A stretch of DNA of 39,571 nucleotides from the NCBI GenBank assembly GCA_900319275.1, contig ONNS01000010.1, positions 1-39,571 of the forward strand, written 5' to 3'. Under the pieces are notes generated by a model, which saw nothing but the letters and a program-made list of their open reading frames with translations, was not told the DNA's origin and did not search any database. Made by a program: the position numbers and the translations under genes. How positions within the stretch are numbered: position 1 is the first letter of the stretch; each line of letters opens with the position of its first letter. Positions 1,857-34,787 of this stretch are shown here, one piece after another. This DNA comes from an uncultured Eubacteriales bacterium (GTDB lineage Bacteria > Bacillota > Clostridia > Oscillospirales > Oscillospiraceae).

Positions 1857-3149
1857 TCAGCTCCTTTCCGTCATTTTACGCTCAAACGCTTCACACCGCT
1901 TTATAGCCCTCTCCAGCCACGCCCGTCTCTTCCTGGACCGTTCCCGGCCCCAGTAGCTCGAGATCGCCCTTGCTATCCGAATGATCTGATCGACGTGGTA
2001 CTTCTCTTTGAACCGTTGGCTGCAGCTGCCTTTGATGCTGCCGTAGCGTGAAATCACTGAGCATACGCGCTGCCGCTGGATGGTTCCAGTCTCGCAGATC
2101 TCCCGCCAGGCCCGTGTCAGTGCACGGATCACGCGCTTGACCACCCGCGGCCGCATGGTGATATGTGTCCGGCTAACGCGGTAGCCTCCCATATCCAGAT
2201 ATGGGCAGCCACGCTGCGAGGGCCTCTCCATCGCTCTCCGATGCTTCTCCTCCTCTACAGTCAGGATACGGATGATGCCGGTGGTCGTCCGTATTCGGAT
2301 GCCATAAGTGGCGTCCATCCATTTTGCAAAGGCGGAGACGGCCTTACGGACGCCGGTTCTGGTCCGGCCCATAAAGCCGCAATCGTCCATGTAGGCTTCG
2401 ATCCTCGCGACGTAGGGCTTGAACCTGTCGCGCCTCGTCTGGCCCTGCCGGAGCGCAAATCTCAAACCGTAGCTCATGACGAGATTGAACAGCCAGGCGT
2501 CCAGATAGCCGCCTATAATCAGGCAGCCGCCAGGCGCGAGATTCCCGAGGTATTCAACGACTTTGATGATCCATACCGCCCGCGGGATCTCCTTTCTCAG
2601 GATCTTCACCACGGCAGAGTATTTCGTGGATGCATAGGCCTGTGTCGCGTCGGTCTTCTCAACGAATGAGATATCCAGGGCACCGGAGCGCAGATACCGG
2701 GCTGCCTGGTCTTTGAGCTTTGTCTGGCCATGGCCCGGAATGCTCGCGTGTTGAGTTGGTAAAATCTTTGCGTGAAACAGAGGTTCAAGGGCCAGCGCCG
2801 CGAGATGGCCGAGCAGCTGGTGTGGGATGCACAGGTTGGCGATGTTTCGCACCTTTCCCGTCATGCCGTCCGCCCTCATGGATGTCGTCACCGGGTCAAT
2901 ATAGTCCGGTTCTCTGCCGTTGAGGATGTCTTCCACCATGTCATCGATAATGCAGGCGACATTGTCCGCCGCCTCGAGCTTGACGTTTACATCCGACGTG
3001 AGCTCCGATTCGAAGATCTTCCGCCTCGGGATGCCGGCGAACTCCTCCAGATAGCGCAGGACGTCGTTTCGCTTCCATTTGCCGTCCAGAAATGAGTCTG
3101 CCGCTCTCCACGCCAGCTCGCGGCTGTACTCTTGATATCTCTGCTTCAT
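1857..3149 (-). CDS. DGR reverse transcriptase
   Basis: 430-residue reverse transcriptase, longer than most DGR RTs (about 300-400). Recognisable in order: IPGHGQTKLKDQAARYLRSG near 137-156 (DGR/retron-type block), EKTDATQAYAST near 164-175 with the first catalytic Asp, GGYLDAWLFNLVM near 213-225 (motif 4), and EAYMDD at 251-256 carrying the two catalytic Asp residues (Y253-M-D-D256). The C-terminal 150 residues are strongly basic, as expected for RNA binding. It copies the template RNA made from 3401-3546 and miscopies adenines, so that mutated cDNA replaces the variable repeat. Motif 4 lacks the SQ usual in DGR RTs. The TR lies 251 bases upstream on the same strand. Confidence 0.92.
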   Translation of the reverse strand: MKQRYQEYSRELAWRAADSFLDGKWKRNDVLRYLEEFAGIPRRKIFESELTSDVNVKLEAADNVACIIDDMVEDILNGREPDYIDPVTTSMRADGMTGKVRNIANLCIPHQLLGHLAALALEPLFHAKILPTQHASIPGHGQTKLKDQAARYLRSGALDISFVEKTDATQAYASTKYSAVVKILRKEIPRAVWIIKVVEYLGNLAPGGCLIIGGYLDAWLFNLVMSYGLRFALRQGQTRRDRFKPYVARIEAYMDDCGFMGRTRTGVRKAVSAFAKWMDATYGIRIRTTTGIIRILTVEEEKHRRAMERPSQRGCPYLDMGGYRVSRTHITMRPRVVKRVIRALTRAWREICETGTIQRQRVCSVISRYGSIKGSCSQRFKEKYHVDQIIRIARAISSYWGRERSRKRRAWLERAIKRCEAFERKMTERS

Positions 3150-3400
3150 GTTTCATCCCTCTTTCAGGGAAAGCGTTCTTTCTTTGCATGCAGCGGTCTT
3201 CGGTTAGACGGTCCCTTGAAGCAGGGCCAGCCGCTCTACTACCAACCGCGCCCCAGGCCCACGGCCTGGAGCCCCTACTTCGGGCGCCGGACCATTGCCG
3301 GCGGCCCTTTTGGCGGTGTCGGTATTGTGCGATTTTCTGATAGCGGAATTTGCGACGCAGTATCAGGAGACTCGTTCTCCCTTCGCTCAAAGGAGCGAAC
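3150..3400 (-). other. DGR spacer between TR and RT (likely part of template RNA)
   Basis: 251 bases without a convincing gene, lying between TR and the RT start. In characterised DGRs the RNA downstream of TR is needed to prime and hold the RT. The stretch contains a hairpin at 3253-3269 (CCAGGCC / GGCCTGG, three-base loop) and GC-rich complementary runs near 3280-3315. Frames that cross it are basic, low-complexity shadows. The assignment to template RNA is inference from DGR architecture. Confidence 0.6.
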
Positions 3401-3546
3401 AGAAAGCCGGGGGCGGCCATTCCAGTTCGCGTTCGACGGGGTATTGTTGCCATTCTCGCAGGCCAGGCCAGCATTGGCGCCATTGTTCAGGTTGCCATAC
3501 CGCCAGGGGCAACGGACACCGGCCGAGTTCGTGCCGTAGAAGGCGC
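3401..3546 (-). repeat. DGR template repeat (TR)
   Basis: 146 bases that align without gaps to 4129-4274 with an offset of 728. All 13 mismatches are T on the plus strand here, that is A on the transcribed minus strand: 3421, 3427, 3444, 3447, 3448, 3454, 3456, 3486, 3487, 3498, 3528, 3529 and 3532. Read in the frame of the target protein the template would give N-rich variable codons (AAC/AAT), the standard design of DGR templates because both adenines can be mutated without making stop codons. A GC-rich hairpin (3542-3559, GGCGCG / CGCGCC) marks its upstream edge. Confidence 0.95.
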
Positions 3547-3575
3547 GCAGTTTCGCGCCGCAAATCCCTTAATGA

Positions 3576-3722
3576 TTACTTGCCCAGCTCAGGCCGCGGG
3601 CCGCAGATCAGAACGGCTTCGGCCGCTGTGATCGTGCCGCTGTCGGCGTAGCCCCACACGTCCGCTGCTGTGATACGGTGCAGACGATACTGGGTTCGGA
3701 TCAGAAAAAATTTTGTAGACAT
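3576..3722 (-). CDS. XkdX-like small phage protein
   Basis: 48 residues, MSTKFFLIRTQYRLHRITAA at the start. The layout (a hydrophobic aromatic start, a helix with ADVWGYADSGTITAAEAVLI) matches XkdX, a short protein found after the tail fibre genes of Bacillus and clostridial phages; its role is unknown. ATG 3722 has a GGAGGG site and lies two bases after the upstream gene. A longer frame starting at 3818 exists but overlaps that gene, so the short start is preferred. It ends 30 bases before the TR. Confidence 0.7.
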   Translation of the reverse strand: MSTKFFLIRTQYRLHRITAADVWGYADSGTITAAEAVLICGPRPELGK

Positions 3723-3724
3723 GC

Positions 3725-4045
3725 TTATCCCTCCGTCATGCCAAGCAGCAGCTCTTCCATGTCGGACACCCGCTGCTCCAGTGTGATTTCCTCGACCGGT
3801 TGCTGGCCGAACGCCCACCAGGCGGCAAAGTTGGCCGTGACGCTCTGCACCGTTTCCTCTCGGTCCTCGGGCAGGTCGAAAACGACTTCGTCGTATTCGT
3901 AGACAGTCCCGTCGTCGTCGGTGCGCTCGGTCACATGGTCAGCCATTCTAACAACGCGCCTGCCGTCAGGGAAATTTTCGATTGTGACCGGCGCCGGTGC
4001 GCAGCTCGACTGTGTTTTTACATACAGCATTTGTCTATCCTCCAT
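3725..4045 (-). CDS. Small tail-region protein between variable protein and XkdX-like gene
   Basis: 106 residues, acidic, with a C-terminal helix ending ITLEQRVSDMEELLLG, typical of small clostridial phage proteins encoded just before XkdX. Residues 40-62 are rich in acid (TERTDDDGTVYEYDEVVFDL). It occupies the position where many DGRs encode Avd, but it is acidic and lacks the basic four-helix pattern of Avd, so I call it a tail-associated protein of unknown role. ATG 4045 has a GGAGG site. Confidence 0.7.
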   Translation of the reverse strand: MEDRQMLYVKTQSSCAPAPVTIENFPDGRRVVRMADHVTERTDDDGTVYEYDEVVFDLPEDREETVQSVTANFAAWWAFGQQPVEEITLEQRVSDMEELLLGMTEG

Positions 4046-4068
4046 GCAGATTTTGTCATGATTTTATT

Positions 4069-4085
4069 GAGGGGTCTTGCCCCTC
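4069..4085. promoter_or_regulatory. DGR target-site hairpin downstream of VR
   Basis: Six-bp stem GAGGGG / CCCCTC with a five-base loop, lying eight bases after the stop codon of the variable protein and 44 bases from the end of VR. No T-run follows on the minus strand, so it is not a standard terminator. Short GC-rich hairpins just past VR are known to raise homing in phage BPP-1 and related DGRs; assignment here is by position and form. Confidence 0.55.
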
Positions 4086-4092
4086 TGGTCGG

Positions 4093-5799
4093 CTACGCCG
4101 CCCATTCACCCCGCTTTTTACCCGAACCAGAAAGCCGGGGGCGGCCATACCAGTACGCGTTCGACGGGGTACTGCCGCCATCCCCGCAGGCCAGGCCAGC
4201 ATTGGCGCCATTGCGCAGGTTGCCAGACCGCCAGGGGCAACGGACACCGGCCGAGCCCGCGCCGTAGAAGGCGCTCTTGAAGAAAGTCGTGCTCGAACCG
4301 CCGATCTCAGCCGGGAACAGAGCAGCCTTGTCCGTATCAGCAAAGCGCTTGACGTACTGCCAGCCTTGCGGCATTTGTGCATAGGCGATGCCGGTGTCCT
4401 CGTAGTCTGCCGTGATGCTGCCGGACAGGTTCTCGCTGTCGCGGCACTCGAACACGGCGTAGTCGCCGTGGCCGTCGGCAAAGTTGGTGACGTTGTAGAG
4501 CGGATCGAGGCCGATGTCATACGCGCCGGACATCATCTCGACGCCCATGATGCGCAGCGGGTTTCGATCGGCGGTGAGGGAGTAGCAGGCGCCGTCCTTG
4601 TGTCCGGGCAGGCGCTCGGTGTTGCCGCTGTCCCAGGGCATCGTGATGATCTGCGTGGTCCCGGCCGTGACGTCAATACCGGCATCCAGGTCAAGGTTGA
4701 CAGCTACATACTCGGTGCTGTCCACCGTTACGGTCTCCATACTCAGGATGCGCACGCAGTCGCCGAGGCTGTAGCTGCTCGCAGCGCCGCGGTCCGCGCT
4801 CGCGTTGGTGCCAATGCTGACGTTAGAGCCGACCTGCAAATTGGCCGCCTGGGCCGCCGTGATCAGGACGCGCTTGACGCCGGTCTCGGTGACAGCGGCG
4901 GTGTAGCGGAAATCGTAACTCTGGCAGCCGTTGCAGATGTCCGAGTTCTCGAGGTCCCAGTGGCGCAGCTGCCACATGTCCAGTGCCCAGATCGCGTCGG
5001 CATCGTTCCAAAGGCCCTCGTAGGCCGTGACGGTGCGTGCGGACGCGATGCCCTGGTTGGCGCTACGGCGGATAAAAGGTTTCTGTCCGCGGCCGGAGCC
5101 GAGGCGGCCCTGACTGTCGTAGCCGCCGGGGAACGTCGGCCTCCAGGTCAGGTCGCGCTTGGTGTTGTCCGGGGCCACGTCGCCGGCGTAGGGGGTATAG
5201 CCGCCGGGATTGGTCAGGCTCCAGCTTTTGTAGATGTAACCGCCTTCCGTCCACTTGCGCCGCCAGAGCGCCGGGGCGAAGGTGTAAACGGGGGCCATGG
5301 CGCCGGTGATGTCAAAGGCGTCGTCTACTCCCTCGATCGCCAGCACGTTCATCGTGCCGTCGGCAAGGGACAAAGCATTTGCGCGGATGTACCAGCCGCC
5401 CAGCGGGTCCTCGTCGGTCCAGTCGGCCACGGGCGTCGTCGAATCGGTGCACAGCTGCGCCGCGCTGAGCTGCGCCAGATCACCGACCGGCGTCATGGCC
5501 GGCGCGCCGCTGGTGGCCGGATCGACGTATTTGAGCGTGTACACCTTGTCGCCCCAGGCGTTGCGCAGCATAGCGGCAAAGCGGCACAGCAGCGTGTAGC
5601 GGTTATCGGCGGGTGACGCGGCGCGGGCGCGTGTGTACCAGGTCCGAAAAACCTGCGTTGTGTTCGATCCGTTTAGGATCGCCCTGAAGATTGCGTCAAG
5701 AGCTTCCGGACTTGATGCACCGTTTGCGGCGATGGTTTCGAGCGCTCGGGCCACGCGCTCGCCTTGTTCAGCGTTTGGAAATACATTTTTGATGCTCAT
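4093..5799 (-). CDS. DGR-diversified tail tip/fibre protein with C-terminal lectin-like domain
   Basis: 568 residues. The N-terminal 150 look like a phage structural segment (MSIKNVFPNAEQGERVARAL). The rest is rich in W, G and aromatic residues (WQLRHWDLEN, MPWDSGNTERLPGH, GYDSQGRLG), as in the C-type-lectin fold of DGR targets. The VR encodes residues 510-557, ending NAYWYGRPRLS; 11 codons follow to the stop. Ten residues differ from the template-encoded version: A514, G515, S525, R529, G539, D540, G542, S543, Y549 and Y551. It likely contacts the host surface, so the DGR shifts receptor choice. ATG 5799 has a GAAAGGA site. The lectin fold is inferred from VR design and position, not shown directly. 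Confidence 0.9.
   Translation of the reverse strand: MSIKNVFPNAEQGERVARALETIAANGASSPEALDAIFRAILNGSNTTQVFRTWYTRARAASPADNRYTLLCRFAAMLRNAWGDKVYTLKYVDPATSGAPAMTPVGDLAQLSAAQLCTDSTTPVADWTDEDPLGGWYIRANALSLADGTMNVLAIEGVDDAFDITGAMAPVYTFAPALWRRKWTEGGYIYKSWSLTNPGGYTPYAGDVAPDNTKRDLTWRPTFPGGYDSQGRLGSGRGQKPFIRRSANQGIASARTVTAYEGLWNDADAIWALDMWQLRHWDLENSDICNGCQSYDFRYTAAVTETGVKRVLITAAQAANLQVGSNVSIGTNASADRGAASSYSLGDCVRILSMETVTVDSTEYVAVNLDLDAGIDVTAGTTQIITMPWDSGNTERLPGHKDGACYSLTADRNPLRIMGVEMMSGAYDIGLDPLYNVTNFADGHGDYAVFECRDSENLSGSITADYEDTGIAYAQMPQGWQYVKRFADTDKAALFPAEIGGSSTTFFKSAFYGAGSAGVRCPWRSGNLRNGANAGLACGDGGSTPSNAYWYGRPRLSGSGKKRGEWAA
4129..4274 (-). repeat. DGR variable repeat (VR)
   Basis: Partner of the TR at 3401-3546, inside the 3' end of the 568-residue tail protein. 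Relative to TR on the coding strand the changes are nine A to G, two A to C and two A to T; no change affects C, G or T of the template. The unchanged GC-rich end near 4129-4148 (GGCCGCCCCCGGCTTTCT on the coding strand) is the likely initiation-of-homing region. Just past it the two copies differ by one extra C in VR (CGAACC versus CGAAC, plus strand). Confidence 0.95.
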
Positions 5800-6511: not shown

Positions 6512-7170
6512 CCTGCATTTCCTCCTATGCTCGCATAGAGATAGCCGCCGCGGAGATAAAAGCTGATCTCCGTGTTCGGCGTTTTGACATAGTGCAGATA
6601 GCCCTGTTCGTCGATGTAAAAGCGGATCCAGCCGCCCTCTGATGCCTGCTGTTCGGCGAGCTTGGCGTAGTATTTCGCGTTGTCCTCATCCTCGCCCAGT
6701 CGTGTGCCGGTCCCGCCGGCCGCCCAGCTCTCCGATAGGATCGCGGCGTCCTCGGCCTGCTGGGCAGACTCGCGCGCCTGCTCTACGATCTGGGTGCCGA
6801 TATCGGCAGAGGGATCTGCCGGCTCGATGCCCGAGGCCTCGGCGCCCGGCACGACGCGGCCGACCGTGGCCCAGATGGTCGGGATGACGATATCGCCGTC
6901 GCCGTTTTTGCCGACGACGCCGACGTCAAAGGTCAGCGAGGGCCGCGCCAGCACTTCCCAGGGCACGACGGCCGGGCCGAAATCCTCGGACAGCAGCACG
7001 TCGCGCGTCGCTGTCTGCGACCGGAAAACCGCATAGACGACGAGCCCGGCATAGTCCTCGCTCAGCTCAAACTCGGTCACGATGCCGCGGCTGCCGGCGG
7101 TGACCGGCTGGCCGCTCGGCTCGACGGCCGCCGAGGCGCAGCGGCCGTTTGCCCGGAATATGATTTTCAC
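6508..7170 (-). CDS. Baseplate / upper tail-fibre protein (BppU-like N-terminus)
   Basis: 220 residues. The first 110 residues (MKIIFRANGRCASAAVEPSG, then FELSEDYAGLVVYAVFRSQT) resemble the beta-rich N-terminal domain of upper baseplate proteins in phages of Gram-positive hosts. A helical alanine-rich part follows (QARESAQQAEDAAILSESWA) and the C-terminus (YIDEQGYLHYVKTPNTEISF) looks like a small beta tip. It sits between the tail hub genes and the fibre genes. Family membership is inferred from pattern and position. Confidence 0.65.
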   Translation of the reverse strand: MKIIFRANGRCASAAVEPSGQPVTAGSRGIVTEFELSEDYAGLVVYAVFRSQTATRDVLLSEDFGPAVVPWEVLARPSLTFDVGVVGKNGDGDIVIPTIWATVGRVVPGAEASGIEPADPSADIGTQIVEQARESAQQAEDAAILSESWAAGGTGTRLGEDEDNAKYYAKLAEQQASEGGWIRFYIDEQGYLHYVKTPNTEISFYLRGGYLYASIGGNAG

Positions 7171-7390: not shown

Positions 7391-8479
7391 TTATCCAATG
7401 TTGACCACCACCCTCTCCAGCTCGTGATCCATAACGCCGCCGACTTTGAGATCCATTGTCCAGGCGTGCTCTATGCAGATCGCGTCGAGATCTCCATAGC
7501 GCAGGCCGACCACGTCGGCCACGCCGAATCCCGGCTGCAGCGCCGTCGAGACGCTGATCGTCTCGGCGCCGATCAAGCTGTCGTTGCGTTTCTGGTTCAC
7601 GATCTCCTGCAGCGCGGCCAGGTTTTCCACATTGTTTACGCGCTCGACGCTGACGATGCGGCGGCCGCGCCGGATGATCGACAGCGGGCTCTGCGGGTTA
7701 TTGTTTTCCGCGCGTGCGACCAGCGGCGCGTTTTTATCGGCATTGCTGCACACGCAGACAAAGACGTTCGGGGCCTGGTAGATATCCGTGGAGCGGCCGA
7801 TTTTCGGCAGCATGCGGACGATCGGCAGCGCGCCGTGCGCGAGATCGTCCGGCTGGTCGGACAGGATGTGCTCGATATTGGCGGCCGTCGGCACCGATGC
7901 CGGCTCGAGGATCGCGGCGCCCCGCGAGTCAAACCACAGCGGATTATAGCTGATTTCCTCGAGCAGCCCGTTGACGATCTCGAGATAGCTGGTGCCGATG
8001 TCCCAGTCCTCGCGGGCCTCGGCAAAGGTCTTGTCCGTCCGGGTCTCGACGACCAGGATGATGCCGCAGGCCGTCAGCAGCTGCTTGATCGCTGTGAGAT
8101 AGTTTGTGCCCGCCGCAAAATAGAGCAGGCTCTCTGTGTAGGTGTCTTTGACGCGCCAGCACCGGTCGTAAGCCTCGATCCTGATCGAGGCGACGCCGTT
8201 TTCCTCCTCCGGGTCGACCGTCGCCGGCATGAATGTGCCCAGCGGATGCTCGGCGCCGTCGATGATCAGGACCGGCTCGATCTCATCGGCGAGCCAGTCT
8301 GGCTCGAGCCTGTTTCCGTCCACGTCCAGGACGACCGGCGAGAAGGTCCCGGACAGGGAGGTTTTGATCTCGGCGCCGTCGTCCATGCGCAGCGAGCGCG
8401 AGCCCTTTTCCGGGGCCTGCAGGAGACCGTAAAAGGCGTTGTTCCGCAGGACACGGTACTCAAAATCAATCGTCCTCAA
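7391..8479 (-). CDS. Tail hub / baseplate protein
   Basis: 362 residues from a TTG start at 8479, which overlaps the end of the distal tail gene by 14 bases and has GGAGGG six bases upstream; a longer frame from 8614 reads into low-complexity basic sequence and is not used. The opening (RTIDFEYRVLRNNAFYGLLQ) and the block DPEEENGVASIRIEAYDRCW match a family of clostridial tail proteins placed after the distal tail gene, whose domains resemble the tail hub (gp27/Tal-like). It should form the end of the tail tube. No peptidase motif is visible. Confidence 0.7.
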   Translation of the reverse strand: MRTIDFEYRVLRNNAFYGLLQAPEKGSRSLRMDDGAEIKTSLSGTFSPVVLDVDGNRLEPDWLADEIEPVLIIDGAEHPLGTFMPATVDPEEENGVASIRIEAYDRCWRVKDTYTESLLYFAAGTNYLTAIKQLLTACGIILVVETRTDKTFAEAREDWDIGTSYLEIVNGLLEEISYNPLWFDSRGAAILEPASVPTAANIEHILSDQPDDLAHGALPIVRMLPKIGRSTDIYQAPNVFVCVCSNADKNAPLVARAENNNPQSPLSIIRRGRRIVSVERVNNVENLAALQEIVNQKRNDSLIGAETISVSTALQPGFGVADVVGLRYGDLDAICIEHAWTMDLKVGGVMDHELERVVVNIG

Positions 8480-33156: not shown

Positions 33157-33351
33157 ATGATCGCTTTACTATTTGTTGCCCTGGTCATGCTTATGATGGG
33201 CTTTGCCGTCTGGCTTGTGGCAAACACGCCGACATATACAGATTTCACCGTTTTCTTCAGCATCGTTCTCGCGGCGGTGCTGATCACATTCGGGATCCTG
33301 GTCTTTATGTATCTGTTCAGCGATGACGAGGGCGAGGATAAGAAGAAATGA
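33157..33351 (+). CDS. Small two-span membrane protein
   Basis: 64 residues: two hydrophobic helices (LLFVALVMLMMGFAVWLVAN, 4-23, and FFSIVLAAVLITFGILVFMY, 33-52), then a charged tail (SDDEGEDKKK). ATG 33157 has TGGAGG upstream and its stop overlaps the recombinase start (ATGA). Small membrane proteins next to integrases often act in superinfection exclusion; not shown here. Confidence 0.7.
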   Translation: MIALLFVALVMLMMGFAVWLVANTPTYTDFTVFFSIVLAAVLITFGILVFMYLFSDDEGEDKKK

Positions 33352-34787
33352 AAACCGCCGCCGCCTATGTCCGTGTCTCGACCGAGAGACAGGACGAATA
33401 CAGCCTCGACTCCCAGCTCAAGCTGATCCGGGACTATGGCGCTAAAAATGATTATGTTGTACCGGATGAATTCGTATTTATAGACGATGGCATCTCCGGT
33501 CGCACGGCGGCCAAACGTCCGGAGTTTCGCCGCATGATCGCGCTGGCCAAGGAGAAGGAACACCCATTCGAGACGATTCTTGTCTGGAAATTCAGCCGCT
33601 TTGCCCGAAATCAGGAGGAGAGCATCGTCTATAAATCCATGCTCGCCCGCTCGGGCGTCGACGTTGTCAGCATCTCCGAGCCGCTCGCGGAGGGGCCCTT
33701 CGGCAGTCTGATCGAGCGCATTCTGGAATGGATGGATGAATTTTATTCGATCCGCCTCTCCGGCGAGGTCAAGCGCGGCATGGCCGAAAAGGTCAGCCGC
33801 GGCGAGGTCGTGACTATCCCCTCCTTCGGCTATGATATCGACGGGAAGAGCTACGTCCCGAACGGCGACGCCGACACCGTGCGCCGGATCTACCGGGAAT
33901 ATCTGGCTGGTAAAGGCATGCAGGCGATCGCCCGGCAGCTCGGTCTTGAAGGCGTCCGCACGCGCCGCGGGAATCCCCCGGAAAACCGCTGGGTCGAATA
34001 CATCTTGACCAACCCTGTGTATATCGGGAAGATACGCTGGTCAAAAGACGGCAAGTCCAATTACCAGCGCGGCGGCGACGCTTCCGGCAGCTATCTGACC
34101 GACGGCCATTTTGAGCCGTTGATCCCGCTCGAGGAGTGGGACGCCGTACAGGCGAAGATCGCGGCATCCAAAGCCGGGCGCAGTAAGTACGAGCGCCGGG
34201 AGCAGACCGTGGAGTGGATGCTGAAAGGGCTGTGCCGCTGCTCTGCCTGCAACTCCACGCTGGTGTATACCGCCCCGTCCTGCCCGTCCATGCAGTGCTA
34301 CAAATACGCCCATGGAAATTGTCAGACCTCGCACTCGCTCTCGATCGCCAAAGCGAACCGCCAGACGATTGCCGCTCTTGAATTCGCGTCTGCAAATTAC
34401 GTTTTTCCGCTCGCTCCGCACACGGTGAAGCTCGACGCCGCAGCGCCGGACTATGAGCACCTGATCGCCGTCGAGCGTTTGAAGATCCGCCGGATCCAAG
34501 AGGCCTATGAGGCCGAGATCTACACGCTGCAGGAATATGCCCAGCGCAAGAAAGAGATCTCCAAAAAGATCGAGGAGCTGGAGCAGCAGGCAGAACAGAA
34601 ACGATCCGAAGCCCGAGCCCAGGCGCTCGACCCTGTCGCGTTTGCGAAAAAGGTGCAGGACGTGCTTCGGATCCTAAAGGATCCCATGCAGAGCGAGAGC
34701 GCCAAAAACGCCGCGCTGAAAACCGTCGTTTCCTATATCGTATACGAAAAGCCCGCTAAACGCCTGGCTGTTTATTTTTACGTCTGA
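33348..34787 (+). CDS. Large serine recombinase (phage integrase)
   Basis: 479 residues. Catalytic domain AAYVRVSTERQDEYSLDSQ with Ser11, then DGISGRTAAKRPEFRRMIAL and WKFSRFARNQEESIVYKSML. The recombinase domain follows (VSRGEVVTIPSFGYDIDGKS). A zinc-ribbon has CRCSAC and CPSMQC, and a coiled coil occupies about 380-425 (EEISKK-type, EELEQQAEQKRSEARA). Large serine recombinases of this class join attP and attB with a two-base core and need a directionality factor to excise. It faces the chromosome and lies about 100 bases from the right att site. Confidence 0.95.
   Translation: MKTAAAYVRVSTERQDEYSLDSQLKLIRDYGAKNDYVVPDEFVFIDDGISGRTAAKRPEFRRMIALAKEKEHPFETILVWKFSRFARNQEESIVYKSMLARSGVDVVSISEPLAEGPFGSLIERILEWMDEFYSIRLSGEVKRGMAEKVSRGEVVTIPSFGYDIDGKSYVPNGDADTVRRIYREYLAGKGMQAIARQLGLEGVRTRRGNPPENRWVEYILTNPVYIGKIRWSKDGKSNYQRGGDASGSYLTDGHFEPLIPLEEWDAVQAKIAASKAGRSKYERREQTVEWMLKGLCRCSACNSTLVYTAPSCPSMQCYKYAHGNCQTSHSLSIAKANRQTIAALEFASANYVFPLAPHTVKLDAAAPDYEHLIAVERLKIRRIQEAYEAEIYTLQEYAQRKKEISKKIEELEQQAEQKRSEARAQALDPVAFAKKVQDVLRILKDPMQSESAKNAALKTVVSYIVYEKPAKRLAVYFYV

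What the first reader, a model, noticed from the sequence alone, without database searches (positions are those of the whole stretch)
3401..4274. Active-looking DGR: 13 of 13 TR/VR differences are at template adenines
TR 3401-3546 and VR 4129-4274 align without a gap. Every mismatch is A in the template on the coding strand and ten codons change (Thr/Asn to Ala/Gly, Tyr to Ser, Asn to Arg, Glu to Gly, Asn to Asp, Gly, Ser, Tyr, Tyr). Mutations at A only are the signature of DGR retrohoming, here on a tail protein, so this phage can vary its host contact. The lack of any non-A difference suggests recent activity.
Basis: partly seen in the sequence, partly recalled or inferred. Interest (0 to 1): 0.8.

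Follow-up and report, generated by a model that had tools for sequence, protein, structure and literature searches.

The report
Phage gene-diversifying retroelement, unusual enzyme
A virus lying dormant in a bacterium carries a cassette that rewrites the tip of one of its tail proteins by miscopying adenines, and it does so with an enzyme that lacks the short motif long thought to be the hallmark of such enzymes and with no usual helper protein gene beside it.

Summary
Confirmed: a diversity-generating retroelement (DGR). TR 3401-3546 and VR 4129-4274 align without a gap and differ at 13 positions, all template adenines (chance about 2e-11). It sits in a temperate siphophage-like prophage; target is a tail-type protein, reverse transcriptase (RT) at 1857-3149, minus. 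A 91%-identical prophage has a near-identical TR, another VR (18/18 at A), and VR follows TR at both TR changes, the mark of retrohoming. In a sister lineage ten loci on nine contigs share one 140-nt TR; nine VRs are all distinct: 122 differences at A, 1 elsewhere. No Avd gene beside it. A spacer RNA between TR and RT folds with strong covariation (71 double changes, 23 in shuffles), is not in Rfam, and its 3' end pairs with the TR end in a covarying helix, probably the cDNA primer. Known kind of system, new variant.

The parts
4093..5799 (-). DGR target gene, 568 aa, tail-type protein; VR at its C-terminus
   Evidence: PHROG 17147 (7e-119, unknown function) and tail family phrog_5302 (1.8e-17, best stretch residues 441-552)
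4129..4274 (-). VR, variable repeat
4129..4146 (-). adenine-free 3' end of VR (IMH-like position)
   Evidence: sequence
4086..4104 (-). hairpin downstream of VR holding the target's stop codon in its loop; stem of 8 positions with one G.A mismatch here, 8 perfect bp with GTAA loop in relatives such as L022 and L027
4069..4085 (-). second conserved hairpin (GAGGGG...CCCCTC)
3725..4045 (-). small ORF, 106 aa, no family match
3576..3722 (-). small ORF, 48 aa, no family match
3401..3546 (-). TR, template repeat
3401..3406 (-). TR 3' end strand (CTTTCT) of the proposed priming helix
3183..3340 (-). structured core of the spacer RNA between TR and RT (five helices)
3178..3183 (-). spacer strand (AGAAAG) of the proposed priming helix
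1857..3149 (-). DGR reverse transcriptase, 430 aa, YMDD active site, no Pfam match
2484..2519 (-). RT region 4, residues 211-222 IIGGYLDAWLFN, where canonical DGR RTs have (I/V/L)GxxxSQ

Best explanation
It is a DGR of a temperate tailed phage. The RNA that holds TR and the spacer folds so that the spacer's 3' segment pairs with the end of TR; the RT uses this duplex to start cDNA synthesis and copies TR, misreading adenines; the mutated cDNA replaces VR in the tail-protein gene, aided by the adenine-free VR end and the hairpin behind it. Shown here: A-only TR/VR differences, TR-to-VR overwriting by comparison, many VR alleles over one TR in a sister lineage, covarying spacer structure and covarying TR/spacer helix. 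Inferred: that this helix is the primer, that the RNA and RT suffice without Avd, and that the varied face binds the host. The RT does this with D-A in place of S-Q, so the SQ pair is not what makes these enzymes adenine-specific.
For: 13/13 at A; L003: TR 144/146 identical, VR 18/18 at A, VR follows TR at positions 5 and 105; 15 loci: 234 A, 7 non-A; ten loci on nine contigs, one TR, nine distinct VRs, 122 A to 1 non-A; 26 of 26 A columns and 1 of 114 others vary; best solved match is the BPP-1 RT; R101 and I212 invariant in 14 RTs; search with RT residues 1-200 only: 25 of 26 loci readable at the motif, 25 of 25 have D-A; the 16 D-A rows stand together on one side of a branch, 100/99; bAvd not found on the window's contig nor in the 35 virus and phage records searched; 69 (covariation), 63 and 123 (model finds spacers it was not built from), 113 (own TR/spacer pairs better than swapped, 1 of 20000; three control windows flat).
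Against: No reads of this strain were available. bAvd genes exist elsewhere in the own genome (C47, in a second DGR; C70) and in L003's genome, so help in trans is not excluded for these two, though G216 (96% complete) has a D-A DGR and no bAvd match. HMMER and hhalign place A-W, not D-A, opposite BPP-1's S-Q, a one-residue shift; the ungapped series L013 - G487 - window favours D-A. In the window the TR/spacer helix is only 6 bp, and in L012 the best-scoring pairing is elsewhere; in BPP-1 the pairing next to the priming site is only the second-best hit. The window's downstream hairpin has a mismatch. 7 of 241 TR/VR differences were not at A, and 4 of 10 in L069/L071. PADLOC's best RT hit is a short match to RT_UG4 (2.5e-5, 29 residues).
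Confidence: 0.88

Rival explanations
1. A fossil DGR: the TR/VR pair is real but the RT lost its hallmark motif and no longer works.
For: An earlier survey read SQ variants as probable inactivation or sequencing errors, another raised errors or recent mutation (PMC4244168, PMC3521204, passages). Some clade members are broken: L034 RT frame break, L025 VR/TR collapse.
Against: D-A is kept in 25 of 25 readable RTs found without the motif in the query; the sister lineage shows nine VRs over one TR; the window's RT frame is intact; VR follows TR after divergence from L003.
Confidence: 0.05
2. The DGR works but needs Avd supplied in trans from another DGR in the same cell, such as the one on contig C47.
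For: Own genome and L003's genome each carry a bAvd gene beside another TR/VR pair.
Against: No bAvd match in G216 (96% complete) or G487, nor in the 35 virus and phage records searched (most are fragments and hosts are unknown, so absence there is weak).
Confidence: 0.12
3. The spacer RNA is a cis-regulator of RT translation or a transcription attenuator rather than a priming scaffold.
For: It lies just upstream of the RT start codon.
Against: The segment behind its core covaries with the TR end, which regulation of RT would not require; the same kind of scan in BPP-1 returns, as second-best hit, TR ATCACCT with spacer AGGTGGT, next to the priming adenine A56 as I recall it.
Confidence: 0.1

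Closest known systems
BPP-1 DGR of Bordetella phage (bRT, Avd, Mtd; NC_005357)
   Same: Target with C-terminal VR, TR, spacer between TR and RT, A-only mutagenesis and a hairpin after VR (the last two from papers), order target - TR - RT; RT alignable (E 6e-10); positions of Arg74 and Ile181 kept (R101, I212).
   Different: No Avd found; RT region 4 has D-A for S-Q; our spacer model does not match BPP-1 (best 3.5 bits); target not alignable to Mtd.
SQ-type phage DGRs from human gut without a bAvd match (MT835477, MT835469, MT835485; MT836575 with S-C; MT839517 has a related RT but no TR/VR was found in its 8 kb)
   Same: Compact cassette, no bAvd match in the record, RT 24-26% identical; weak matches of the spacer model at the right place in MT836575 (22.7 bits) and MT835477 (17.4), and in L013 of genome G129 (24.2).
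   Different: RT motif IGSxLSQ or IGSYLSC; targets only distantly similar (25-28%).
Second DGR of the same genome (contig C47, L038)
   Same: Prophage-type DGR; 10 of 10 mismatches at A; lysin- and holin-like genes beside it (by eye).
   Different: Has Avd, RT motif VGSLISQ, no match to the spacer model at its spacer.

Membership tests
Diversity-generating retroelement | TR/VR pair with mismatches confined to template A | tested here: met
   13/13; clade 234 of 241 over 15 loci
Diversity-generating retroelement | Adjacent RT gene with catalytic YxDD | tested here: met
   430 aa, YMDD
Diversity-generating retroelement | RT related to DGR RTs | tested here: met
   Best solved match 8ub7_A E 2.3e-9; next, retron-type and group II intron RTs, 0.08 or worse. 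The tree held DGR-type RTs only, so it does not test this
Diversity-generating retroelement | (I/V/L)GxxxSQ motif in RT region 4 (characteristic, kept in 90% of DGRs in PMC3521204; not strictly defining) | tested here: not met
   IGGYLDAW
Diversity-generating retroelement | Avd accessory protein (frequent, 62% in PMC8934634; not defining) | tested here: not met
   PF22296 not on the window's contig; 0 of 20 virus and phage records; 0 of 16 (15 viral contigs and genome G487)
Diversity-generating retroelement | Inverted repeat or hairpin 4-34 bp after VR (Guo 2011, PMC3240598) | tested here: met
   24 bases after VR; 8-position stem with one mismatch here; loop GTA or GTAA, not the reported GRNA
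Diversity-generating retroelement | TR transferred into VR (retrohoming) | tested here: met
   By comparison only: VR follows both TR changes in L003; nine VRs over one TR in a sister lineage
Diversity-generating retroelement | Target with C-type lectin fold (usual, not defining) | tested here: inconclusive
   Structure prediction switched off; no profile match
Diversity-generating retroelement | VR turnover in reads of this strain | not testable with these tools
   No reads available

The most novel reading that the evidence does not exclude
A lineage of phage DGRs in which the RT region-4 pair S-Q has been replaced for good by D/E-A/S and Avd is absent, its role being taken by a dedicated structured spacer RNA that carries its own primer strand: an RNA-plus-RT minimal DGR that keeps full adenine specificity, showing that neither SQ nor Avd is needed for adenine mutagenesis.
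Probability: 0.5. Interest if true: 0.65.

Novelty: new variant of a known kind. Interest (0 to 1): 0.48.

Why it matters
The SQ pair has been proposed to define the fidelity of DGR RTs (PMC3521204, passage). A whole clade without it that mutates adenines with like specificity and spectrum separates that motif from the activity and points to other residues. A compact RT-plus-RNA cassette with no Avd gene beside it and a readable priming helix makes the question of what is minimally needed for adenine mutagenesis directly testable in the test tube. The window's RT also has no Pfam match at E 0.1, so annotation that starts from Pfam's RT model would overlook it.

Tried and rejected
Chance repeat or ordinary duplication: rejected. 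Further TR or VR copies in the genome: none found. Avd among the two small ORFs between target and TR: no library match (PADLOC was given only the larger one). Known RNA family: none in Rfam. BPP-1-like spacer: no. In the 250 genomes the third hit of the spacer model, G028 at 27.3 bits, has no RT in its 3.1-kb locus and is taken as false (the longer stretch L051 was fetched but not examined). C-type lectin fold by profile: no result. Other strains' VRs by DNA pattern in viral contigs: only the window itself. The first TR/VR finder forbade non-A mismatches by construction and was replaced by a neutral one, which still started from its places. The first wide search for clade members had GGYLDAW among its seeds, so its motif count is biased; one search used only RT residues 1-200. 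The first test of the TR/spacer helix used windows overlapping a core helix and gave 541 of 20000; the corrected windows gave 1, 0 and 6 of 20000 in three sizes. In one search one row (L019) was translated in a wrong frame; the tree was rebuilt without it. Rows left out of counts: L021, L025, L033 of 18 D-A loci (no TR/VR found in the held DNA) and L008, L013, L014 among relatives; L091 (second copy on L090's contig). The 'SQ' group wrongly held L010, which reads S-C; recounted without it. L063 gave no TR/VR, no RT match and no spacer match; L075 no spacer match.

Full report
What is there. TR (3401-3546) and VR (4129-4274) align over 146 bases without a gap; 13 mismatches, all at A of the coding (minus) strand. 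With 27 A among 146 bases the chance is 1.6e-11. No TR adenine lies in a third codon position, so nearly every misreading changes the protein. The own genome (3.04 Mb, 161 contigs) shows only these two copies.

Setting. The window is itself held as IMG/VR record 2799112583_000004. By PHROG and Pfam it carries terminase, portal, capsid, major tail and tape-measure proteins, then the target, the RT, an NlpC/P60-type lysin and a holin, with a serine integrase at 33348-34787 and bacterial-type genes (F420 ligase family, Mur ligase) beyond it: a temperate siphophage-like prophage (inference). The target (568 aa) matches a PHROG tail family in its C-terminal part.

Activity. L003, from a Ruminococcaceae MAG, is 91% identical over 5.7 kb. 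Its TR differs from the window's at 2 of 146 bases, its VR from its own TR at 18 positions, 18 of 18 at A; and at both positions where the two TRs differ, each VR carries its own TR's base. That is what overwriting of VR by TR predicts. After dropping L091, the second copy on L090's contig, the nine VRs are all different: 122 mismatches at A, 1 elsewhere; 26 of 26 A columns vary and 1 of 114 other columns. L087's VR lacks three bases inside an AAC repeat; indels in AAC repeats are mentioned in PMC12875486 (passage). L086's VR is cut by its contig end (104 of 140 bases).

The RT. It has YMDD and matches PHROG RT family 1423 (2.7e-22) but no Pfam family at E 0.1; PADLOC gives only a short RT_UG4 match (2.5e-5). 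A profile of 14 clade RTs finds the RT of 8ub7 (BPP-1) as best solved match (2.3e-9; next 0.08). DGR RTs are described by (I/V/L)GxxxSQ in region 4; DiGReF found it in 90% and listed SP, SH, NQ, PA, AQ, VQ as variants with adenine exchanges (PMC3521204, passages), and another survey took variants as probable inactivation or errors (PMC4244168, passages). Here the motif is IGGYLDAW. Because the first wide clade search used GGYLDAW as a seed, I searched again with residues 1-200 only: of 26 loci (16 clusters at 90% identity, the window included) 25 are readable at the motif and all 25 have D-A: IGGYLDA, IGGYIDA or IGGYSDA. A search by the target protein added E-A (L066) and E-S (L069, L071). The nearest outgroup, G487, has IGGYLSTWLFN but YADD and a contig too short to show TR/VR; L013 has IIGSLLSQFLCN: an ungapped series from S-Q through S-T to D-A. 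HMMER and hhalign instead put A-W opposite BPP-1's S-Q; either way S-Q is gone. The 16 D-A rows of the tree stand together (100/99) among SQ-type DGR RTs; the root is arbitrary and no non-DGR RT was in it.

Does it matter? A neutral count over 15 D-A loci gives 234 TR/VR differences at A and 7 elsewhere, 59% of TR adenines changed, A to G:T:C of 124:64:46. Four SQ relatives give 56 and 0, 55%, 28:18:10; the spectra do not differ (p 0.77), nor the fractions (p 0.50). With L010 (S-C) included the figures are 70 and 0, 54%, 37:19:14, p 0.998 and 0.31. Two C-Q relatives give 26 and 0 with spectrum 19:6:1 (p 0.08). These are coding sequences under selection and small samples, so this is a field comparison, not enzymology. 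Two bRT residues that I recall as promoters of adenine mutagenesis, Arg74 and Ile181 (Handa 2021; paper not held; seen only in a reference list), correspond to R101 and I212, invariant in all 14 RTs.

Avd. The bAvd model (PF22296) finds the gene on contig C47 of the same genome, so it works as a positive control, but not on the window's contig. It finds none in the 14 viral contigs and 6 phage records, none in the 15 viral contigs and genome G487, and none in genomes G216 and G129; L003's genome has one, on another contig. Many of these records are fragments. DGRs without Avd are not new: 62% co-occur with an Avd-like domain in PMC8934634 (passage).

The spacer RNA. Thirteen TR-to-RT spacers (window and L003 near-identical) align and fold into five helices, 26 pairs, 20 with at least one double change. 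87.8% of cells pair; 71 cells are changed on both sides against 23.0 in shuffles (0 of 500 as high) and at most 21 in slid versions. A covariance model from 12 of them finds spacers it was not built from: L034 68.7 bits, L027 59.0, the collapsed L025 38.7, and 15 of 17 further loci, ten of them one lineage. Weaker matches lie at the same place before other RTs (L013 24.2, L010 22.7, L006 17.4). Nothing in Rfam matches, nor does BPP-1. In 250 genomes of the family, under strict filters, it rings in 3: the own genome, G216 next to its D-A RT, and one judged false. [quoted passage not shown]

The primer helix. The last bases of TR can pair with a segment just after the core: CTTTCT/AGAAAG here (3401-3406 with 3178-3183), CTTACTGAT/ATCAGTAAG in L029, TTACTGATTTTAT/ATAAAATCAGTAA in L030, TCTTAGTGA/TCACTAAGA in L032, TTTATGT/ACATAAA in L005. 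Over 14 loci own pairs score 17.1 against 12.6 for swapped pairs (1 of 20000 permutations as high; 0 and 6 with two other window sizes); three control windows show nothing. L012's best hit was elsewhere. The same kind of scan in BPP-1 gives ATCACCT/AGGTGGT at spacer bases 48-54 as its second-best hit, just before the known priming adenine A56 (recalled; PMC12875486 says that an internal adenine of the spacer primes, passage). So I read this helix as the cDNA primer. The general plan is known for BPP-1; I found no description of this spacer family or of D-A RTs (searches, open-licence library only; the 2025 Nature paper on the BPP-1 RNA is not held).

Behind VR. A stem of 8 positions follows 24 bases after VR, with the stop codon in its loop; seven of eight pair in the window, and relatives such as L022 and L027 have perfect stems with a GTAA loop. 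This fits the hairpin or cruciform of Guo 2011 (PMC3240598, passages) except for the loop sequence.

Verdict. Ordinary as a DGR; unusual in its RT motif and in a compact plan without Avd and with its own structured RNA. A new variant of a known kind.

Noticed in passing
L038 6029-9079 (contig C47 of the same genome): A second, canonical DGR in the same genome: target, Avd, TR 7672-7785 with VR 6983-7096 (10 of 10 mismatches at A), RT with VGSLISQ; lysin- and holin-like genes follow (by eye).
   Followed up: partly
L025 5640-6010: VR and TR seem to have recombined: the target's end is unmutated TR-like sequence running into the TR 3' flank; the target's normal tail and part of the spacer core are missing. 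A natural collapse of a DGR.
   Followed up: partly
L034 around 6669: RT reading frame is broken just after IIGGYLDAWLF although its TR/VR differences are 16 of 16 at A.
   Followed up: no
L090 and L091 (IMGVR_UViG_3300031853_000021): One 78.7-kb record holds two copies of the same DGR with identical TR and VR, about 39 kb apart; an assembly duplication or tandem copy. The RT frame of L091 ends earlier (404 against 459 residues).
   Followed up: no
window 3576-4045: Two small ORFs lie between target and TR: 546 bases from stop to TR here and in L003, against 56-130 printed for 11 other loci (L005 and L022 left out, wrong frame chosen there).
   Followed up: no
L069/L071 6492-6892: TR/VR differ at 10 positions, 6 at A and 4 at G or T: a less A-pure pair in the E-S branch, perhaps ageing.
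   Followed up: no
L039 3218-3601 (contig C70): A bAvd-model match (41.4 bits, just over the cut-off) between two genes that look like ABC transporters; no A-biased repeat found in the 12 kb fetched.
   Followed up: no
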